Shown: positions 16,977 to 63,656 of the stretch, piece after piece
Position numbering within the stretch: the stretch's first letter is position 1
How the letters are laid out: each line of letters begins with the position of its first letter
Assembly: GCA_015478895.1 (NCBI GenBank)
Contig: JADMKK010000041.1
Span: 124,001 to 188,000, forward strand
DNA length: 64,000 nt
Direction of reading: 5' to 3'
Origin: Comamonas sp.
Lineage (GTDB): Bacteria > Pseudomonadota > Gammaproteobacteria > Burkholderiales > Burkholderiaceae_C
The notes under the pieces: model-generated
The model's database searches: none
Told to the model about the DNA's origin: nothing
What the model saw: the letters and a program-made list of their open reading frames with translations, nothing else
Translations under genes and position numbers: made by a program

Positions 16977-17963
16977 ATGTCCCGCACCCGTTCCCTGTGG
17001 CGCACCGCGCTGACCGTCACCGCCTTGGCCGCCGCCATCACCGGCGCAGCCCATGCTGCAGATGCCTACCCGAGCAAGCCCATCACGCTGGTGATTCCTT
17101 ACTCGGCCGGTGGTTCGACCGACATCCTGGGCCGTCTGATTGCGCAAAAACTCAGCGAGCGCCTGAACGTGTCCGTGGTGGTGGAAAACAAGCCCGGTGC
17201 CAACGGCACGATTGGTGTGGACCGCGTGGCCAAGGCCCCTGCAGACGGCTACACCGTGGTGCTGGGTGACGTGGGCGGCCTAGCGATTTCGCCCAGCCTC
17301 TACCCCAAACTGCCCTACAAGCCCCTCACCGATCTGGATGTGGTGAGCCTGGTGGGCCGCAGCCCGCTGGTGCTGACCGTGGGCAGCAAGAGCCCGCTGC
17401 AATCGCTGGCCGACCTGACCGCCGCCGCCAAGGCCAAGCCTGAAGTGCTCAACTACCCCTCCTCGGGCACCGGCGGCCCCAACCACATGGGCGGCGCGCT
17501 GTATGCCCTGCAGGCCGATGTGAAAGTCACCCACGTGCCGTACAAGGGCAGTGCGCCTTCCGTGGTGTCGCTGGTGGCCGGTGAAACTGATTTTGGTTTC
17601 CTGACCGCCGTCACCATCAACTCCCAGCTGAACGCAGGCAACCTGCGTGCGCTGGCCGTGGCCCATACCGAGCGCCTGCCCGCCATGCCGAATGTGCCCA
17701 CCATGCACGAGGCCGGTCTGAAGAACTTTGTGGCCGACGCCTGGTTCATGGCTGCCGTGCCCGCAGGCACGCCCAAGCCCATCATCGATTTGCTGCAAAA
17801 GGAAATCGCCGCCGTACTGCCGGAAGCCGACGTGAAGGCCAAGCTCGACAGCGTGGGCGTGCTGCCAGCCGGCATGTCAGTCAAGGATTCGCAGGCGTTC
17901 CTCGCCAAGGAAATCACCAAATGGGACAACGTGGTCAAGCAAGCCAAGATCACGCTGGACTAA
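16977..17963 (+). CDS. Bug-family (TTT) periplasmic solute-binding receptor
   Basis: Periplasmic binding protein of the tripartite tricarboxylate transporter type, a family greatly expanded in Burkholderiales. The 328 residues begin with a signal peptide ending AHA near residue 27, followed by YPSKPITLVIPYSAGGSTDILGR, VENKPGANGTIG, HVPYKGSAPSVVSLVAGETDF and LPAMPNVPTMHEAG, all typical of the fold. The ATG has AGGAAGG 9 bases upstream. No TctA or TctB membrane genes are adjacent, so this is an orphan receptor and its ligand is unknown. Confidence 0.92.
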   Translation: MSRTRSLWRTALTVTALAAAITGAAHAADAYPSKPITLVIPYSAGGSTDILGRLIAQKLSERLNVSVVVENKPGANGTIGVDRVAKAPADGYTVVLGDVGGLAISPSLYPKLPYKPLTDLDVVSLVGRSPLVLTVGSKSPLQSLADLTAAAKAKPEVLNYPSSGTGGPNHMGGALYALQADVKVTHVPYKGSAPSVVSLVAGETDFGFLTAVTINSQLNAGNLRALAVAHTERLPAMPNVPTMHEAGLKNFVADAWFMAAVPAGTPKPIIDLLQKEIAAVLPEADVKAKLDSVGVLPAGMSVKDSQAFLAKEITKWDNVVKQAKITLD

Positions 17964-18029: not shown

Positions 18030-19475
18030 TTACTTGCCGATGCAAAAACTGCTGAAGATCACGCCCAGCAAATCGTCGGACGTGAACTCGCCCGTAATGC
18101 TGTTGAGCGCGGTTTGCGCCAGGCGCAGCTCCTCGGCCAGGATGTCCAGCGCCGGGCCGGGCACGTTGAGCTGGTCATGCGCTTCTTCCAAATGGGCACC
18201 CACGGCCTGCAGCGCCTCCACATGGCGCGCGCGCGCAATGTACAGGCCTTCAGCGGCCGACTGCCAGCCGGCCACCTGCAGCAGGCGCTGGCGCACGGCA
18301 TCCAGACCATCGCCGGTGCGGGCGGACAGGCTCAGGCTTGCCTCGCTGCCCTTGCGGCCCGCCAGCGGTGGCAGCGTCTGCATGTGGGCCCCGGGTGCTG
18401 CCAGGTCGGTCTTGTTCCACAGGTCGATCACGGGAATGTTCGGCGCGATGCGCTCGGCCAGCGTGCGCGCAATCTCCAGATCGGCGCCAGCGTAGTCGCT
18501 GTCGCCCATGCGCGAGAGATCGTGCAGAAACAGCACGGCATCGGCCCCGGCAATCTCTTCCCACGCCCGGGCAATGCCAATGCGCTCCACCTCATCATTG
18601 CTATCGCGCAGACCGGCGGTGTCGATCACGTGCAGCGGCACGCCGTCGATCTGGATGGTCTGCTGCACCTTGTCGCGCGTCGTGCCAGCAATCGGCGTGA
18701 CGATGGCCAGCTCCGCCCCCGCCAAGGCGTTGAGCAGCGAGCTTTTACCCGCATTGGGCTGCCCCGCAATCACTACCTTGATGCCTTCGCGCAGCAGCGC
18801 GCCTTGCTGGGTGCGCGCCAGCACCATGCCCAGCAAGGCGCGCAGAGCGTCCAGCTGCCCATAGGCATCGGCCTTCTTCAGAAAATCGATTTCTTCTTCG
18901 GGAAAGTCCAGCGTGGCTTCCACCAGCATGCGCAGGTGCACCAGCGCATCGCGCAGCTCGCCAATCTCGCGCGAGAACTCGCCCGACAGGGAGCGGCTGG
19001 CGCTGCGCGCTGCGGCTTCGGTGCTGGCGTCGATCAGGTCGGCAATGGCCTCAGCCTGCGCCAGGTCGATCTTGTCGTTCATGAACGCGCGCTCGGTGAA
19101 CTCGCCGGGTTGCGCCAGACGCAGGCCGGGCAGCACAGCATCACCCGATGTGGGCGCCACCTCTTGCGCAGCCTCCAAGCAACGCGCCAGCAGCAGCTGC
19201 AGCACCACGGGACCGCCGTGCGCCTGCAGCTCCAGCACGTCTTCGCCGGTATAGCTGTTGGGGCCGGGAAAGTACAGGGCCAAGCCATGGTCGATGGGCG
19301 CTTGCTTGGCATCTTTGAAAGGCAAGTACGTGGCTTCGCGCGGCTTTAGCTCTTTGCCCAGCAAGTGGCGCACAAAGCCTGCAATGGCTTTGCCGGAAAC
19401 GCGAACAATGCCCACGGCCCCGCGCCCTGGCGCAGTAGCAATGGCAACGATGGGGTCGGTATGGCGCGCAAGCAT
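18030..19475 (-). CDS. mnmE: tRNA modification GTPase MnmE
   Basis: With MnmG, installs the carboxymethylaminomethyl group at U34 of several tRNAs. The 481 residues start at [20 protein letters not shown] (folate-binding domain). The G domain contains [16 protein letters not shown] (G1), DTAGLRD (G3) and NKTDL (G4), and the chain ends with the invariant CIGK. The frame extends upstream to 19649, but the family start is the ATG at 19475. It sits in the classic rpmH-rnpA-yidD-yidC-mnmE order, read from the dnaA side. Confidence 0.96.
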
Positions 19476-22763: not shown

Positions 22764-24170
22764 ATGACAGAGGAACTACCTAACGATGCTGGTCAAGGCC
22801 TGTGGTTGGCCTGCGTCGAGCAGCTCAGCCAGGACTTGCCTGAGCAACAGTTCAATACTTGGATCAAACCTTTGGTGGCGACGGTCACGGAAGACTTCTC
22901 CAAAGTGACGGTCTATGTGGCCAACCGTTTTAAGCTTGACTGGATCCGCGCCCAATATGCGGGACGCATTTCCGGCCTGCTGGAAGACTTGTACGGCCAG
23001 CCCGTCACTCTGGAGTTGGCGCTTGCTCACCGTGAAAGTGTGGTGCGCACTTATGTTCGACCTTACCAAGCCGAACGCAGCACCCCTTCGGAGGCTCCAA
23101 CGCTGCTGCCCTCTGGCTCCAGCGTGGAAGAAGCACCGGTTCCCGCATTTCGCAACCGCCTGAACTCGGCCCTGACGTTTGAAACGCTCGTCGAAGGTAC
23201 CGCCAACCGCATGGCGCGCTCGGCCGCCATGCATGTGGCCGGCTCGCCCGGCCATCTGTACAACCCGCTATTTATATATGGCGGTGTCGGCCTGGGTAAG
23301 ACGCACCTTGTACATGCTGTGGGTAACCAGCTGCTCAAGGACAAACCGGACGCCAAAATTCTTTACATCCATGCCGAGCAATTTGTCTCGGATGTGGTGA
23401 AAGCCTACCAGCGTCGCACCTTTGATGAGTTCAAAGAACGCTACCACTCGCTCGATCTTTTGCTGATTGACGACGTGCAGTTCTTTGCCAACAAAGACCG
23501 CACGCAGGAAGAATTCTTTAACGCGTTTGAAGCCTTGCTGGCCAAAAAGAGCCACATCGTGATGACCTCAGACACCTATCCCAAGGGTCTGACCAACATT
23601 CATGAGCGCCTGGTGTCGCGCTTTGACTCTGGCTTGACCGTGGCGATTGAGCCGCCCGAGCTGGAAATGCGCGTGGCCATCCTGATCAACAAAGCGCGTG
23701 CGGAGAATGCCGAGATGCCCGAAGAGGTTGCCTTCTTTGTGGCCAAAAACGTGCGCTCAAACGTGCGTGAACTTGAAGGTGCGCTGCGCAAAATCCTGGC
23801 TTATTCGCGCTTCAACCAAAAAGAAGTGTCGATCCAGCTGGCGCGAGAGGCGCTGCGCGATCTACTGAGCATTCAAAACCGCCAGATCAGTGTGGAAAAC
23901 ATCCAGAAGACGGTGGCTGACTACTACAAGATCAAGGTCGCGGACATGTACAGCAAGAAGCGCCCTGCGTCGATTGCCCGCCCGCGCCAGATCGCCATGT
24001 ATTTGGCCAAAGAGTTGACGCAAAAGAGCTTGCCCGAGATTGGCGAGCTGTTTGGCGGCCGCGATCACACCACGGTGCTGCACGCCGTGCGCAAGATCTC
24101 GGCCGAGCGCCAGCAACTGACCGAGCTGAACCAGCAGCTGCATGTGCTGGAGCAAACGCTCAAAGGCTGA
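22764..24170 (+). CDS. dnaA: Chromosomal replication initiator protein DnaA
   Basis: AAA+ initiator that binds DnaA boxes, melts the origin and loads the helicase. The 468 residues have domain I (1-85), a linker (about 90-125), the AAA+ core with Walker A GGVGLGKT at 163-170 and Walker B LLIDDVQF, and the C-terminal DNA-binding domain with the signature [15 protein letters not shown]. Normal length. Preceded by DnaA boxes and followed by dnaN and gyrB in the common order. Confidence 0.98.
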
Positions 24171-52671: not shown

Positions 52672-53580
52672 GCATCGTCTCCTTATAAGTAGAGGCAAAT
52701 GTAAGCAGGGTCACAAACTCACTGGCATGGGAAACTACCGAGCATCTTGAAGCAGAGCAAGCCCAAGCTGCTGATACTTAGTAATTGGTAGCAGTGAGCC
52801 TTTATTACATAAGGGCTTGAGGCCCATTTAGACCAATAAACGCTCGACCATGTCGAGGTCTTTTCCTACAAGAAGATTGATTTTTTGTGCAGCCTGCACA
52901 AAGGCATACCTATCAAATCTCTTGCATCTGCCAAAATTTTTGTTATTTTTTTAACAATGATTTCCAACCACAAGAAATAGATCAGAAAAGTAACAAGAAT
53001 TTTCGTTTGCTCTCGTCATATTTGTAGAAGAAAGAGCATTTTGTAATATTTATTATCTTTCAAGACGTGAAAGCTATCGACTACTTCGAGATGGCTTATC
53101 TAATTTCCCAAAAGCTTGAGCAAACTTTTTCTTTGTAGATTGTGGGTAAGTAGCTAACAATTTCTGTTAGTCAATTTTGGCAAAATTTAGATATGCAGCT
53201 TCTACTTATCCACAGGACGATGGATCTACAGAGTTGTGGATAGTCTTAGCATGATTGAAAAGATTTTTTCATGACTCTCGCAGAATTAATCTTATATTTA
53301 TCCACATACTTTTTCTTTTCAAAAGCTTGCCGCGCTCACTTAAATCCTTGATTGAGCCTGCTTGAAATCCACAATCTATAATTGTTTTTCCACCGCTTTT
53401 CCCAGTACCGGTCCAAAGCTTCACCGACCTCGGAGTACAAGTGAAGTGCTTGAAAAACAAGCACTGACTCGTCCGATAGAGTGCTATAGATAATTTTTGA
53501 AATGCTGTTCTGAGAATTTTTGTGTATTGAAAAGAATTTTTCAAACTATCCAGCAGCTCTCAACATCACAGAATTCCCCA
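52672..53580. other. AT-rich intergenic region with DnaA-box cluster upstream of dinG
   Basis: A 909-bp gap between divergent genes. It has exact DnaA boxes at 53206-53214 and 53298-53306, single-mismatch boxes at 53141-53149 and 53235-53243, and a poorer one at 53365-53373. An ATAGCT-type repeat lies at 52784. A more GC-rich, hairpin-forming patch follows at 53400-53470 (AGTGCTTG at 53445 pairs with CAAGCACT at 53458). No convincing gene was found on either strand and no DnaA-trio tract. Confidence 0.6.
52784..52840 (+). repeat. ATAGCT-type repeat, degenerate
   Basis: GGTAGCAGTGAGCCTTTA, loop, TAAGGGCTTGAGGCC: the same order as at 30.9 and 59.9 kb with several changes. Confidence 0.5.
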
Positions 53581-58789: not shown

Positions 58790-59788
58790 ATGCAAAACTT
58801 CGTTCGTAAAACTCTGGTCTGCGCTTTGACTGCTGCTGCAGGCTTGTCCGCCGCCAGCGCTTTTGCCCAGTCTGACGTGACCCTGTATGGCCGTGTCGAT
58901 CTGGGTCTGCGCTATGAAAGCGCCAAGAACCAGCCCACCACCCAGATGGACTCCGGCACTTACAGCGCCATCGGTTTCAAGGGCAAGGAAGATCTGGGCG
59001 GTGGTCTGAAGGCTTTCTTCCAGATAGAACACCGTCTGGATGCCTCCACCGGTGCCAACAAGAGCGATACATCGTTCTTCAACGACATCTCGGTGATTGG
59101 TCTGTCTGGCAACTTCGGTACTGTGCGCATGGGCCGCTCAGACAACACCTTAAACATCGCGGCTGACCCCGATGTCTTCGGCGGTGACTTTGTGGGTGGG
59201 CGCGGTAACCGCCGCGCAGGTGCCGACGAAAAGTGGAACAACGGCGTGATGTACTTCACCCCTGAAGTGGCGGGCTTGCAGGCCATCGTTGGTGCTGCTT
59301 TGGGTGAAAATGCCAGCTTCACCGATGGTTCACGCGAAAAGAATCCCTTTGGTCTGACCGTGCTGTACAAAAACGGCAACCTGACTTCCGCGCTGGGCTA
59401 CATGCAGCGTGCCAACCAGGACAAGGCTTACGCCGGCAGCGCCACGTACGACTTTGGTGTGGCCAAGACTTTCCTGACCGTGGCACACAACAACGGCAAA
59501 GGCAACGGCCAGATCGTAGATGGCGAGCAAGACGGCAAGCGCACCACCTATGACCTGGGTGTGGCCGTGCCAGTGAGCGCCGCTGGTTCTGTGCGTGCCA
59601 AGTACAACTTTGATCGCAAAGACCTGAAGGCAACCGGTGCGGCACTGACCAAGACCCATGACCTGGGTCTGGGCTACTGGCACCACCTGAGCAAGCGTAC
59701 CCAGCTGTACGTGACCGGCAACGTCGAAAAAATCGAAGGCCAGAAAACCACGCGCGCCATGGACATGGGCGTATCGCACAGCTTCTAA
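58790..59788 (+). CDS. Gram-negative porin (trimeric outer-membrane channel)
   Basis: General diffusion porin of the Burkholderiales type. The 332 residues have a signal peptide ending AFA near residue 25, then QSDVTLYGRVDLGLRYES, the L3/strand segments GFKGKEDLGGGLKAFFQIEHR and GNFGTVRMGRSDNT, and a final strand ending in SHSF with the C-terminal Phe recognised by the BAM complex. Start at the ATG at 58790. A strong terminator follows. Confidence 0.94.
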   Translation: MQNFVRKTLVCALTAAAGLSAASAFAQSDVTLYGRVDLGLRYESAKNQPTTQMDSGTYSAIGFKGKEDLGGGLKAFFQIEHRLDASTGANKSDTSFFNDISVIGLSGNFGTVRMGRSDNTLNIAADPDVFGGDFVGGRGNRRAGADEKWNNGVMYFTPEVAGLQAIVGAALGENASFTDGSREKNPFGLTVLYKNGNLTSALGYMQRANQDKAYAGSATYDFGVAKTFLTVAHNNGKGNGQIVDGEQDGKRTTYDLGVAVPVSAAGSVRAKYNFDRKDLKATGAALTKTHDLGLGYWHHLSKRTQLYVTGNVEKIEGQKTTRAMDMGVSHSF

Positions 59789-60340: not shown

Positions 60341-60650
60341 CTTTTTGAATGCTGTTTTTCCTGTTTTCCAGTAAGCACTTCGTCACCCGTTGAATTTATT
60401 TGAACGAATAGCGTTGTCACCATGGTGGTGTCTTCTGGCTATCCACTGTTGTGCATAACTTTCTGTGGATAAGCTTTGGAGAAAGAAAAACTTTGCGCTT
60501 TTCAGAGCCTCACTGAAAAGGCGTTTTCAGCGTGTTTGATGGCGTTCTTTAACACGTGGACAGTGACTGCCATCATTTTCTGACTATTTGACGGGTGCTT
60601 GCACCTGCGCTGCCTACTTTTTCTGATCGACATGTCTTTCACCTAACTTG

Positions 60651-60712
60651 TTCTTTTTTATATATAAAAAAAATAGTAGGTAATAGTAGGTGAGCACTCT
60701 TTCTGTGGATAA
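60651..60712 (-). other. Basal unwinding element 1 (AT-rich tract, DnaA trios, DnaA box)
   Basis: Read on the minus strand: exact DnaA box (60712-60704), 13-bp spacer, trio-like tract CCTACTATTACCTACTA (60690-60674), then an A/T-only stretch with TATATATA. This is the order box, GC-containing spacer, DnaA trios, unwinding element described for bacterial origins. Confidence 0.7.
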
Positions 60713-61083
60713 CTTTGGTTTCAAACCTGATTTCAAGCACTTGCAGTCTTGCGAATCATGTGGGTCAGCCCCTGTTCCCGCTGTCATGCAAACAGGGATA
60801 ACTTCCAAAAAATTTGAATTTCTGTGGATATCTACGCTTTGTTCCTATTTTTATCCACAGGTTTTTTAGATCGCTGATGTAACCGTATTTTTGGCAATAA
60901 ACCCTTATGAATCTTAGGAACAGTGCTATCAATTTTAAGTTGAACAACTAAGAAAACAACTTTTCTTAGCCAGGGAACGCTGCATGTGCACAGGCAAGCC
61001 ACTCGCGGAAAAGACCGAACTACCTGAAAAACACGGAACGACACGCAAGTGGTTTTAAAAATCTGCGCGATTTTTCGCGCGGT

Positions 61084-61150
61084 TGTTATTCTTTATTTAT
61101 TCTATTTTTAATTAGTAGTAATAGTAAGCAAGTCCTGCTTCTGTGGATAA
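61084..61150 (-). other. Basal unwinding element 2 (AT-rich tract, DnaA trios, DnaA box)
   Basis: Read on the minus strand: exact DnaA box (61150-61142), 13-bp spacer, CTTACTATTACTACTA (61128-61113), then about 28 bases with very few G or C. The same parts, order and spacing as element 1, 438 bp away; GTTATCCACAGAA is shared by both. Confidence 0.7.
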
Positions 61151-61725
61151 CTTGAAAATTCTGTTTCATATCAAGAGTTTAGAAAACTTCAAAGTATGTG
61201 CTTGAAGGCAGGTACGGCGTGTACCCGTTTTGGGTACAAGTTTGCAGGGTCGACACTTGCAGTGGATAACTCGATAGTTACTCTTTTATTGCACCCAGAC
61301 TTATCCACAATCGACGAATTCGCCTTCAATGCTGTGGAAAGCCTCGTAACTGCGTTACACCAATGCAGCCCAAAGCCCTTGTAATAAAATTACAGGTGAA
61401 AACCCGTAGTTACATGGCTGGCGATTTTTTAGGATTAAGTAGTTGTTTTTATTTTGTTTATTGTTGGTAACTGGATTCGAGAAATCGAAAACATCCAACA
61501 CTGGCTCACGGAATAAGCGCTGCAAAAAAATGCGCTGAATGCGCTTTCCATCGGTCTGCGCAGTGCCAAAAATCCCAGCATGCACAGCCGTACCGCATCG
61601 CTTGTCAGGCTGTGAATAATGAAAAATTCTTTTCAGAGCGGGAAAGTTGTCGCAGCTTCGCGCAGACGACAGGGCGCTGGGCAAAAGGCATTGCCGCCTG
61701 ACAGCCAGTGCTCTGGCGACAGGCA

Positions 61726-61783: not shown

Positions 61784-62353
61784 TTACGCAGCAGGGGCGA
61801 CCGGATGAGCGGCAGGGCTGTGACCATGACCATGGTGTTTGCCGTGGTGGTTTCCAGCACGCTGGCCATGACCAGCCTTGCGAGGGCCCTGGCGCTGGAC
61901 GCTCAGCGCATCAAATGCTTTTTGCTGGCTGGCGTTCAAGCTGGTGTAGAACGTGCGCGTGGCTTGATCCCGCTGCTCGGCCTTGGCAGTGCGCTCTTTG
62001 CGCAGTTGTTGCGCAAGGTCCAGGCGCTCAGGGGTGGTCAGCTTGCGCAGGTCAGGGCGCTCACCGGCAGGCTTGACGCGTGGCTGAGGCGTGATGGCCT
62101 TGGCATACTGATCCCAGGCGGCTTGCTGGCTGGGCTGGATCTGCAAAAGTGTTTTCAGGCGTTCGGTACGATCGGCCTGAAACTTGGCAAAGTCCATGGT
62201 TTTACCGCGTGGGCCATGGTGGGGCGCTGTGTGGGCAGGGGCTGCAGCCGGGCCCTGAGCGGGTGCTGGCTGGGCATGGGCGCTGAACGCGAAAGAACCC
62301 AGCAAAGCGGCGGTGGCAACGGTGGCGGTCAAAGTGCGTTGGAAGAGGGCCAT
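61784..62353 (-). CDS. Periplasmic Spy/CpxP-like LTXXQ-motif protein
   Basis: Probable periplasmic stress chaperone or metal-responsive protein. The 189 residues have a signal peptide (ATVATAALLGSFAFSAHA, cleavage near residue 28), then helical segments with LTTPERLDLAQQLRKERTAK and SLNASQQKAFDAL, the LTxxQ-like repeats. The tail is His/Gly-rich (HHGKHHGHGH), likely metal-binding. The ATG at 62353 has AAGGAG 6 bases before it. It is convergent toward the origin-like region. Confidence 0.8.
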   Translation of the reverse strand: MALFQRTLTATVATAALLGSFAFSAHAQPAPAQGPAAAPAHTAPHHGPRGKTMDFAKFQADRTERLKTLLQIQPSQQAAWDQYAKAITPQPRVKPAGERPDLRKLTTPERLDLAQQLRKERTAKAEQRDQATRTFYTSLNASQQKAFDALSVQRQGPRKAGHGQRAGNHHGKHHGHGHSPAAHPVAPAA

Positions 62354-62642
62354 ATCAAACTCCTTGAGGTGGGGATGGTGCTGCAGGGACACGGCGAGAT
62401 TGCTGTGTCGATGGAGGCAAGTTTGAGGTCTCTATGTAAGCGCTTCGTGAGGCTTTGCTGCTGCTGTGTAAAGTAATAAAAAGCTAGGTGAGTGGCGGGG
62501 CGATAGCAGTGGTAAAAACCAGAGCGTTTTTGCTGTTTTCCCCTTATTCCACCAGGGCCTATAGCTCCTTAATTTGAAGATGGGTGCAGCGAGATCGGGC
62601 ACCCATTTTGGTTTTTAGATATATCAGGAAGAAGGTGGCTGC
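62354..62642. other. Intergenic region between divergent Spy-like and rdgC genes
   Basis: Holds both promoters. CTATAGCTCC near 62567 may be a trace of the ATAGCT repeat. Nothing else recognised. Confidence 0.3.
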
Positions 62643-63656
62643 GTGTTCAAAAACATGATCGTGTACCGCATGGCGGCGCAATGGGAAGGCTCACTGGAGC
62701 AAGTGGAAGAGGCGCTGCAAAAGACGCCATTCATGCAATGCGGCGCGACGCAAGAGCAATCGTCAGGCTGGGTGCCACCACGGGGTGAAGACAATGGCCT
62801 GCTGGCGGAGAGTGTGGGCGGCCAGTGGATCTTGCGCTTCATGAGCGAATCCAAAATGCTGCCTGCCAGCGTGCTCAACCGCAAGGTGCAGGAAAAGGCC
62901 GATGCGATTGAAAAAGAGCTGGGCCGCAAGCCCGGCAAAAAAGAGAAACGCGATCTGAAAGACGAGGCCAAGCTGGACTTGCTGCCCATGGCTTTCACCA
63001 AGCAAAGCAGCATGTGGGTGTGGATAGACCCGCAGGCCAAATTCCTGGTGCTGGACACCGGTGCGCAGGGCAAAGCCGATGACGTGGTAACGCTGCTGGT
63101 CGAAGGCCTCAAGGGCTTTGGCGTGGCACTGCTGGACACGCAAACCAGCGCCCAAGCCGCCATGGCGCACTGGTTGCTGACGCAGGAAGCACCTGTGGGC
63201 TTCAGCATCGACCGCGAGTGTGAACTCAAGGCCGCAGACGAATCCAAGGCTGTGGTGCGCTATGCACGCCATGCGCTGGATATTGACGAAGTCAAACAGC
63301 ACGTAGAACACGGCAAGCTGCCCACCAAACTGGCGCTGACCTGGGACGACCGCGTGAGCTTTGTGCTGACCGACAGCCTGCAGATCAAGAAGATTGCCTT
63401 TACCGATACGGTGCTCGACCAAGCCGGCGACGAAGGCGGCTTTGACACCGATGTGGCGATTGCTACGGGCGAGTTGAGCAAGCTGATTCCCGATCTGATT
63501 GAAGCGCTGGGCGGTGAAGGCCGTACGGAGATGGGTCAGCCCGCAGCCGCTGGTGCCAGCACTGCAACGCTGGCCGTGCGCGTGGCGGGCAAAGGCGCCA
63601 TGACGGGCCCCAAGACTGCGCCGCAAGATACCGATCCGGACGATGCACCCTTTTAA
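62643..63656 (+). CDS. rdgC: Recombination-associated protein RdgC
   Basis: Ring-shaped DNA-binding protein on the nucleoid that limits RecA activity. The 337 residues have the family start MFKNMIVYRMA, WVPPRG near residue 45, GRKPGKKEKRDLKDEAKLDLLPMAF, and the middle segment FLVLDTGAQGKADDVVTLL. It begins at a GTG (62643), preceded by AGGAAGAAGG. The C-terminal Ala/Gly-rich tail (305-337) extends beyond the E. coli protein (303). A terminator follows. Confidence 0.95.
   Translation: MFKNMIVYRMAAQWEGSLEQVEEALQKTPFMQCGATQEQSSGWVPPRGEDNGLLAESVGGQWILRFMSESKMLPASVLNRKVQEKADAIEKELGRKPGKKEKRDLKDEAKLDLLPMAFTKQSSMWVWIDPQAKFLVLDTGAQGKADDVVTLLVEGLKGFGVALLDTQTSAQAAMAHWLLTQEAPVGFSIDRECELKAADESKAVVRYARHALDIDEVKQHVEHGKLPTKLALTWDDRVSFVLTDSLQIKKIAFTDTVLDQAGDEGGFDTDVAIATGELSKLIPDLIEALGGEGRTEMGQPAAAGASTATLAVRVAGKGAMTGPKTAPQDTDPDDAPF

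What the first reader, a model, noticed from the sequence alone, without database searches (positions are those of the whole stretch)
60430..61620. Origin-like region with two basal unwinding elements, 38 kb from dnaA
The region has five exact DnaA boxes plus at least four near matches in 1.2 kb of AT-rich, gene-free DNA. Two boxes (60704, 61142) each have a 13-bp spacer, a DnaA-trio-like tract (CCTACTATTACCTACTA and CTTACTATTACTACTA on the minus strand) and an A/T-only stretch. Box, spacer, trios and melting tract in this order is the published basal unwinding arrangement. The rpmH-dnaA gap lacks trios. I infer the working origin is here, with a duplicated unwinding module, although the dnaA-dnaN-gyrB block kept its order.
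Basis: partly seen in the sequence, partly recalled or inferred. Interest (0 to 1): 0.8.

Follow-up and report, generated by a model that had tools for sequence, protein, structure and literature searches.

The report
Replication origin with two opening modules
This is very probably the chromosome's replication start site in a Comamonas bacterium, and it is built unusually: two complete copies of the DNA-opening unit sit side by side, an arrangement kept across nearly the whole genus, which raises the question of why a chromosome would need two.

Summary
Window 60440-61310 has 5 of the genome's 15 exact DnaA boxes and two tandem, same-strand copies of a ~230-bp module: trios, 13-bp spacer, DnaA box, IHF-like site at -31, second box at -119, inverted box further out. 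A matrix trained without Comamonas finds only these two places in the 300-kb contig. The contig's cumulative GC skew is lowest at 61034, between the copies; in complete C. testosteroni NFYY023 it is also lowest between the two copies, 18 kb from dnaA. The module profile (all but the trio tract) matches E. coli oriC, its only hit in 150 kb of E. coli DNA. The pair is old: 50 of 53 Comamonas genomes have two copies 365-440 bp apart, and copy 2 of Comamonas and Delftia forms its own clade. In 7 of the 50, copy 2 lost its trios but kept boxes; copy 1 kept its trios in all seven. Of 397 family genomes, 390 have a module match and 129 have two or more. Origin-dnaA separation has precedent (Cupriavidus). 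Ten full-text searches found no published tandem complete-oriC origin. Whether both copies open in vivo is untested.

The parts
60440..61310 (.). oriC: two tandem complete origin modules plus left-hand boxes
   Evidence: Skew minimum 61034; R1 matches 60649-60866 and 61084-61309; pair present in 50 of 53 Comamonas genomes
60649..60866 (-). module copy 1 (m1, dinG/porin side)
   Evidence: R1 109.9 bits (R1 was built with this copy among 39 modules); 138.1 bits with a matrix trained without Comamonas
60704..60712 (-). m1 trio-proximal DnaA box (R1-like), TTATCCACA
60691..60703 (-). m1 13-bp spacer
   Evidence: sequence
60674..60690 (-). m1 DnaA-trios CCTACTATTACCTACTA (3'-GAT-5' on the + strand)
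   Evidence: 0.79 mean conservation of the trio+AT block in 17 sequences
60654..60673 (.). m1 20-bp A/T-only tract
   Evidence: sequence
60731..60743 (-). m1 IHF-like site CAAGTGCTTGAAA (8 of 9 specified positions)
   Evidence: offset -31 is the best position in 47 of 50 modules scored; IHF binding not tested
60823..60831 (-). m1 distal DnaA box at 119 bp, ATATCCACA (1 mismatch)
60851..60859 (+). m1 inverted DnaA box at 147 bp
   Evidence: 146-147 bp in 13 of 13 loci examined, window included
61084..61309 (-). module copy 2 (m2, rdgC side)
   Evidence: R1 117.5 bits (R1 was built with this copy among 39 modules); 148.8 bits with a matrix trained without Comamonas
61142..61150 (-). m2 trio-proximal DnaA box, TTATCCACA
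61129..61141 (-). m2 13-bp spacer
   Evidence: sequence
61113..61128 (-). m2 DnaA-trios CTTACTATTACTACTA
   Evidence: 0.83 mean conservation of the trio+AT block in 17 sequences
61103..61112 (.). m2 A/T-only tract (10 bp, then AT-rich)
   Evidence: sequence
61169..61181 (-). m2 IHF-like site TAAACTCTTGATA (9 of 9 specified positions)
   Evidence: that it binds IHF is inference
61261..61269 (-). m2 distal DnaA box at 119 bp, TTATCCACT (1 mismatch)
61301..61309 (+). m2 inverted DnaA box at 159 bp
   Evidence: 158-159 bp in 13 of 13 loci examined, window included
60450..60472 (-). two further boxes beyond m1's A/T tract (60450, 60464)
   Evidence: block 60440-60480 mean conservation 0.72
61034..61034 (.). 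minimum of cumulative GC skew of contig C41 (between m1 and m2)
62643..63656 (+). rdgC, neighbour of the origin
   Evidence: Pfam RdgC E 1.6e-108. Of 61 loci fetched because they encode RdgC, 35 hold a module match, so the neighbourhood is common in Comamonas and relatives but not family-wide
22764..24170 (+). dnaA, 38 kb away; its upstream gap holds two boxes and no module

Best explanation
This is the chromosomal oriC of a Comamonas species. It consists of two tandem, same-orientation copies of a complete ~230-bp origin module, 438 bp apart box to box. In each copy DnaA binds the trio-proximal (R1-like) box, IHF probably bends the DNA at -31 and brings in DnaA on the distal direct and inverted boxes, and the DnaA filament then extends across the 13-bp spacer onto the trios and opens the A/T tract for helicase loading. 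I think most likely that both copies can open in this species: the dinG-side copy (m1) is the indispensable opener, and the rdgC-side copy (m2) is a second opener that also serves as a DnaA-docking array assisting m1. Shown by sequence: location, architecture, conservation, age of the pair, loss of trios seen only in m2. Inferred: DnaA and IHF binding, melting, division of labour.
For: Skew minimum at window 61034 on a 300-kb contig. In C. testosteroni NFYY023 the minimum over 263 kb is at 18122, between modules at 17856 and 18285, with positive skew in four samples at 0.4-1.7 Mb and negative skew in four at 2.1-3.5 Mb. A matrix without Comamonas scores 148.8 and 138.1 here against -18 for the next best place off the modules in 300 kb. 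The module profile finds E. coli oriC as its only match (E up to 10) in 150 kb of E. coli DNA, 27.5 bits, E 1.3e-7, aligning the trio-proximal box with the exact box next to the E. coli DUE and the outer boxes with those at 943 and 982 of L153. Two modules in 50 of 53 Comamonas genomes, every pair on one strand, 365-440 bp apart. 21 copy-2 sequences of Comamonas, Delftia and neighbours form one supported group free of copy-1 rows, and each copy has its own fixed inverted-box distance. Both trio blocks are conserved (0.79 and 0.83 against 0.55 for the linker). In 7 of the 50 pairs m2 (by position) lost the trios while m1 kept them.
Against: No experiment: skew marks average origin use, not which copy melts, and cannot separate copies 438 bp apart. 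In G529, a Comamonas whose m2 lacks trios, the minimum is not between the copies but about 0.3 kb beyond m1. In this window the skew is nearly flat from 50 to 58 kb before the minimum. Where copies lie further apart in other genera, skew favours one site in G107 and G132, is flat between two in G004 and is unclear in G336 and G284, so a spare copy can exist that is not the main start. The 7 Comamonas genomes with one trio tract show that two are not required. 268 of 397 family genomes show one match or none (with strict filters that may lose weak copies). The E. coli match stops at model position 186 and does not include the trio tract.
Confidence: 0.83

Rival explanations
1. oriC is here but only m1 melts; m2 is a DnaA-binding array that helps assemble the complex, as the DUE-less subregion does in bipartite origins. 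m2's trios in this species are a leftover.
For: 7 of 50 Comamonas pairs lack trios in m2 while keeping boxes, the trio-proximal one exact in 6 of 7. C. odontotermitis L097 lacks them too, with its trio-proximal box down to two mismatches. In C. testosteroni and Delftia m2's trio-proximal box is usually TTATCAACA.
Against: In the other 43 of 50 pairs both matches run through the trios. m2's trio block is at least as conserved as m1's, and in this window m2's trio-proximal box and trios are intact. Two C. testosteroni m1 boxes are TTATCAACA too (L082, L083).
Confidence: 0.33
2. Both copies open in the same round and each loads one of the two helicases needed for bidirectional replication.
For: Two complete modules kept at a narrow spacing (365-440 bp in 50 of 50 pairs); skew minimum between the copies in two species.
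Against: Both modules have the same orientation in 50 of 50 pairs, so both would expose the same strand to DnaA. Genomes with one trio tract exist. E. coli-type origins load both helicases at one DUE (background knowledge).
Confidence: 0.12
3. The working origin is beside dnaA and the 61-kb region is a DnaA titration or regulatory site (datA- or DARS-like).
Against: No module match and no convincing trios upstream of dnaA. Cumulative skew is lower at 61 kb than at dnaA here and keeps falling from dnaA to 18 kb in C. testosteroni. That datA- or DARS-type elements lack unwinding elements is recalled.
Confidence: 0.03
4. The second copy is a recent, functionless duplication or an assembly artefact.
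For: None found.
Against: m1 and m2 are 67% identical, the pair is present in 50 of 53 genomes of the genus, and copy 2 of Comamonas and Delftia groups apart from copy 1.
Confidence: 0.02

Closest known systems
E. coli oriC (DUE-R1-IHF-...-R3-R4; box names recalled)
   Same: The family module profile matches it over model positions 2-186 of 230 as the only hit in 150 kb of E. coli DNA: trio-proximal box, central region and outer boxes ending in an inverted one. Also away from dnaA.
   Different: Here the unit occurs twice in tandem and has canonical trios, the part that the E. coli match leaves out. My strict IHF pattern found nothing in E. coli oriC; the aligned letters there fit 7 of 9 by eye. 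No assignment of R2, C or I boxes was tried.
Basal unwinding system (BUS) of Bacillus subtilis and most bacteria (PMC8287927)
   Same: DnaA box, 13-bp spacer (the commonest length there), 3'-GAT-5' trios, A/T tract.
   Different: Two BUSs per origin. The published program screened candidates down to one per genome in over 99% of genomes, so pairs would have been hidden (section 13 read).
Bipartite origins of B. subtilis, Helicobacter pylori and Clostridioides difficile (PMC8235120, PMC7561715: passages)
   Same: Two DnaA-box clusters forming one origin; in 7 of 50 Comamonas pairs only one cluster keeps an unwinding element.
   Different: There the clusters flank dnaA and one has the DUE. Here both clusters are copies of one module, 38 kb from dnaA, and usually both carry trios.
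Origin of Cupriavidus metallidurans CH34 chromosome 1 (PMC2864759: passages)
   Same: Skew switch about 90 kb from dnaA-dnaN-gyrB, next to three perfect DnaA boxes in 213 nt.
   Different: No module structure, trios or duplication are described in the passages seen.

Membership tests
Bacterial chromosomal oriC | Cluster of DnaA boxes well above background | tested here: met
   5 of 15 exact boxes of the genome within 846 bp
Bacterial chromosomal oriC | Skew switch at the site | tested here: met
   Minimum at 61034 on the contig and between the modules in complete C. testosteroni NFYY023; in G529 about 0.3 kb beyond m1
Bacterial chromosomal oriC | Homology or equivalence to a proven oriC | tested here: met
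   E. coli oriC is the sole R1 match in 150 kb, E 1.3e-7, trio tract excepted; calibration is rough; the rest of the E. coli genome could not be searched
Bacterial chromosomal oriC | Replication starts there in vivo | not testable with these tools
   needs marker-frequency or initiation-site mapping
Basal unwinding system (BUS) | DnaA box within 16 bp of at least three NAN trios | tested here: met
Basal unwinding system (BUS) | DnaA-dependent strand separation | not testable with these tools
   needs purified DnaA
Bipartite origin (B. subtilis type) | Two clusters separated by dnaA | tested here: not met
   dnaA is 38 kb away; 438 bp and no ORF of 80 aa or more between the trio-proximal boxes
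Bipartite origin (B. subtilis type) | Only one cluster has a DUE | tested here: not met
   Not met in the window (both have trios); met, as far as trios go, in 7 of 50 Comamonas pairs
datA/DARS-type DnaA regulatory site | DnaA boxes without an unwinding element (recalled) | tested here: not met
   Trios and A/T tract present in both modules; the separate box cluster at 53141-53306 would fit better

The most novel reading that the evidence does not exclude
Comamonas chromosomes start replication from a natural tandem pair of complete, E. coli-type oriCs, both able to unwind. Some genomes of the genus show this pair being turned into a bipartite origin (box array plus single unwinding element) by loss of one trio tract, which would be a route by which bipartite origins arise from duplication.
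Probability: 0.45. Interest if true: 0.82.

Novelty: new variant of a known kind. Interest (0 to 1): 0.64.

Why it matters
Bacterial chromosomes are usually described as having one oriC with one melting site. A genus that keeps two modules in 50 of 53 genomes (and a family in which 129 of 397 sampled genomes show two or more matches) gives natural material for open questions: how many opening sites an origin uses, how two helicases are loaded, how one round per cycle is kept when two openers sit side by side, and how bipartite origins arise. It also gives a profile that places the module in nearly every sampled genome of a family in which dnaA position is misleading.

Tried and rejected
Rejected: origin beside dnaA (no module there, skew lower at 61 kb); recent duplication (copies 67% identical, shared by the genus); chance boxes (p about 6e-15 for a given window); helical phasing of the spacing (417, 428 and 438 looked stepped in the Comamonas/Delftia loci, but pairs under 1 kb across the family range from 269 to 862 bp, the genus itself from 365 to 440, and the data are not independent).

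Led nowhere or inconclusive: an exact pattern search found 27 of 150 family genomes, the window's own included. Dropped before the profile R1 was built: one match in G104 (L047) that looks like chance, and the second, short-spacer modules of G020 and G135 (L049, L050). Skew tests on widely spaced modules: G107 and G132 favour one site, G004 is flat between two, G336 and G284 have their 200-kb minimum elsewhere by a small margin. Of 61 RdgC loci 26 held no R1 match, so rdgC does not mark the origin everywhere. E. coli could not be searched whole. Some extra matches counted in the family survey are partial: in G061, G308 and G338 the second match stops short of the trios. Literature: ten searches gave no report of tandem complete oriC modules; only listings were seen except for the five papers named; one search's terms matched mostly unrelated papers, so this is weak evidence of absence. 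Supplementary tables of PMC8287927 could not be read. Outside the family matches weaken: 47 of 120 order genomes matched, three of them family members; two modules lie 390 bp apart in G402 and three within 1.6 kb in G450; not followed further.

Full report
WHAT IS THERE. The finding lies in a stretch without ORFs of 80 aa or more between a porin gene (58790-59788) and a small LTXXQ-family gene (61784-62392, minus) followed by rdgC (62643-63656). It holds five exact and four one-mismatch DnaA boxes; the whole 3.2-Mb draft genome has 15 exact ones. Two boxes (60704 and 61142, minus strand) are followed by exactly 13 bp and then by trio tracts, whose complement reads 3'-GAT-5' as in published BUSs. 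Among 56 boxes with up to one mismatch in 300 kb of the contig these two have the highest trio scores, 14 and 8, the third being 7. The A/T-only tract is 20 bp in copy 1 but only 10 bp in copy 2.

THE REPEATED UNIT IS LARGER. I searched 150 family genomes for TTATCCACA-N(8-18)-CTACTA; 27 matched, the window's own included, and reading the matches in register showed a conserved module of about 230 bp: trios, spacer, DnaA box (0), a CAAGTnCTTG-like site at -31, a second direct box at -119 and an inverted box further out. 39 modules, both window copies among them, made the sequence-only profile R1; a chance match in G104 and the short-spacer second modules of G020 and G135 were left out. A simpler matrix trained on 32 modules, none from Comamonas, gives the two window copies 148.8 and 138.1 bits; the next best place off the modules in 300 kb scores -18. 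R1 finds two strong matches in the window, 117.5 and 109.9 bits, and three weak ones of 11.1 bits or less.

IT MARKS THE ORIGIN. The cumulative GC skew of contig C41 (300 of 301.9 kb) is lowest at 185034, which is window 61034, between the two copies; before it the curve is nearly flat from window 50 to 58 kb. G115 is C. testosteroni NFYY023, CP044131.1, by its length and rdgC position. On its complete chromosome four skew samples from 0.4 to 1.7 Mb are positive and four from 2.1 to 3.5 Mb are negative; across 263 kb around dnaA the minimum is at 18122, between modules at 17856 and 18285, while dnaA is at position 1. In a third Comamonas (G529, copy 2 without trios) the minimum over 140 kb lies about 0.3 kb beyond copy 1. 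R1 also finds E. coli oriC: it is the only match up to E 10 in 150 kb of E. coli K-12 (27.5 bits, E 1.3e-7). The trio-proximal box aligns with the exact box next to the E. coli DUE and the distal part runs to the rightmost box, but the match ends at model position 186, so the trio tract is not part of it (the names R1, R3 and R4 are recalled). So each copy corresponds to nearly a whole E. coli-type oriC. The published IHF consensus (TAAnnnnTTGATW or WATCAAnnnnTTR, PMC10380432, passages) fits the -31 site: in 50 modules the best position is -31 in 47, 37 of 50 match at least 8 of 9 specified letters, and the reversed motif never exceeds 7. The same script's strict pattern found no site in E. 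coli oriC, where the aligned letters fit 7 of 9 by eye. That IHF binds here is inference.

THE PAIR IS OLD AND KEPT. In 53 genomes of the genus, 50 have two modules, 2 have one and 1 has none; the last and one of the single-module genomes are 85% complete. Each of the 50 pairs is on one strand, 365-440 bp apart. In 13 loci, window included, the boxes sit at nearly the same places (L086 lacks a box with at most one mismatch at 119 bp of copy 1), and the copies differ consistently: the inverted box is 146-147 bp from the trio-proximal box in copy 1 and 158-159 bp in copy 2, 13 of 13 each. In a tree of 50 modules from 25 loci that I chose because they carry close pairs, 21 copy-2 sequences of Comamonas, Delftia and neighbours form one supported group (100/98) without any copy-1 row; the four remaining copy-2 rows (Simplicispira, Paracidovorax valerianellae, two Acidovorax) fall among the copy-1 rows (the root is drawn at the midpoint). 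The copies in the window are 67% identical. Across 17 aligned regions the trio and A/T blocks are the most conserved blocks (0.79 and 0.83), against 0.55 for the linker and 0.42-0.59 for the outer flanks.

A NATURAL EXPERIMENT. In 7 of the 50 pairs the copy-2 match, identified by position, stops before the trios. Reading them showed an exact trio-proximal DnaA box in 6 of 7 (one mismatch in the seventh) but no trios after it, while copy 1 keeps a full tract in all 7. C. odontotermitis S00124 also lacks copy-2 trios, and there the trio-proximal box has two mismatches (L097). In all eight the lost tract is copy 2's. This says that two trio tracts are not essential, that copy-2 boxes are mostly kept without them, and that copy 1 is the likelier indispensable opener. 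Whether the seven form one clade was not tested.

THE WIDER FAMILY. R1 matches 390 of 397 family genomes (125 of 126 genera); 129 have two or more matches (strict filters; confirmed), some of them partial (in G061, G308 and G338 the second stops short of the trios). Of the 129, 121 have a pair on one contig: 40 closer than 1 kb (39 same strand), 49 at 1-5 kb (45 same strand), 19 at 5-20 kb, 13 further; G108's 4.9 Mb is about 15 kb across the circular start. In the examples that I worked out by hand, modules lie 0.2 kb (G057) to 185 kb (G020) from dnaA on a shared contig. In other genera with well-separated modules, skew favours the tandem pair in G107 and one of two sites in G132, is flat between two sites 9 kb apart in G004, and does not decide in G336 and G284. 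These warn that a module is not automatically an active start. rdgC is a neighbour in many relatives but not all: of 61 loci fetched through RdgC, 35 hold a module match.

MECHANISM. Most likely this is oriC and DnaA opens it at the trios next to the R1-like box, as shown for BUSs in other species (PMC8287927: outline and sections 13 and 14 read). I favour a division of labour in which copy 1 always opens and copy 2 can open and also supports the complex. The main rival, copy 2 as a docking array only, is well supported in the seven genomes without copy-2 trios and possible here.

WHAT IS KNOWN AND WHAT IS NEW. Separation of the skew switch from dnaA is published for Cupriavidus metallidurans CH34: about 90 kb, with three perfect boxes in 213 nt (PMC2864759, passages). 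The BUS is published, and the published program screened down to one candidate per genome in over 99% of genomes, so pairs would have been hidden. Bipartite origins with one DUE are published (PMC8235120 and PMC7561715, passages). I found no report of a tandem pair of complete modules in ten searches, with the limits that only open-licence papers are held, that apart from the five papers named I saw listings only, and that the last search was noisy.

Noticed in passing
window 53141-53306: A second DnaA-box cluster (two exact, two one-mismatch boxes) without trios, just upstream of dinG. Clusters of at least three boxes in 400 bp occur 3-7 kb on the same side of the modules in 8 of the 12 other loci examined, several with box spacings of about 55-66 and 92-94 bp as here. 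R1 matches it weakly with the distal half only (11.1 bits). It may be a DARS/datA-like site or an old half-module.
   Followed up: partly
L053, L054, L057, L058 (G003, G107, G008, G126): Modules lie on both sides of rdgC, the gene next to the origin here; G003 and G107 have three modules.
   Followed up: partly
L097 (Comamonas odontotermitis): The module pair is inverted relative to rdgC compared with the other Comamonas loci, and copy 2 has lost its trios.
   Followed up: partly
L062:450 (G135): A trio tract expanded into a long CTA repeat: a microsatellite-like unwinding element or an assembly effect.
   Followed up: no
G045, G151, G225, G287 (genus g46): Two modules about 98-102 kb apart on one contig, same strand, and a third on another contig, in 4 of 4 sampled genomes of this genus.
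   Followed up: no
G402:C1:5138107-5138719 and G450:C1:1853634-1855252: Tandem modules also in another family of the order (f7): two 390 bp apart and three within 1.6 kb.
   Followed up: no
G147, G284, G336, G222, G118, G250: Pairs in opposite orientation 10-46 kb apart; which one is used is unknown (skew undecided in G284 and G336).
   Followed up: partly
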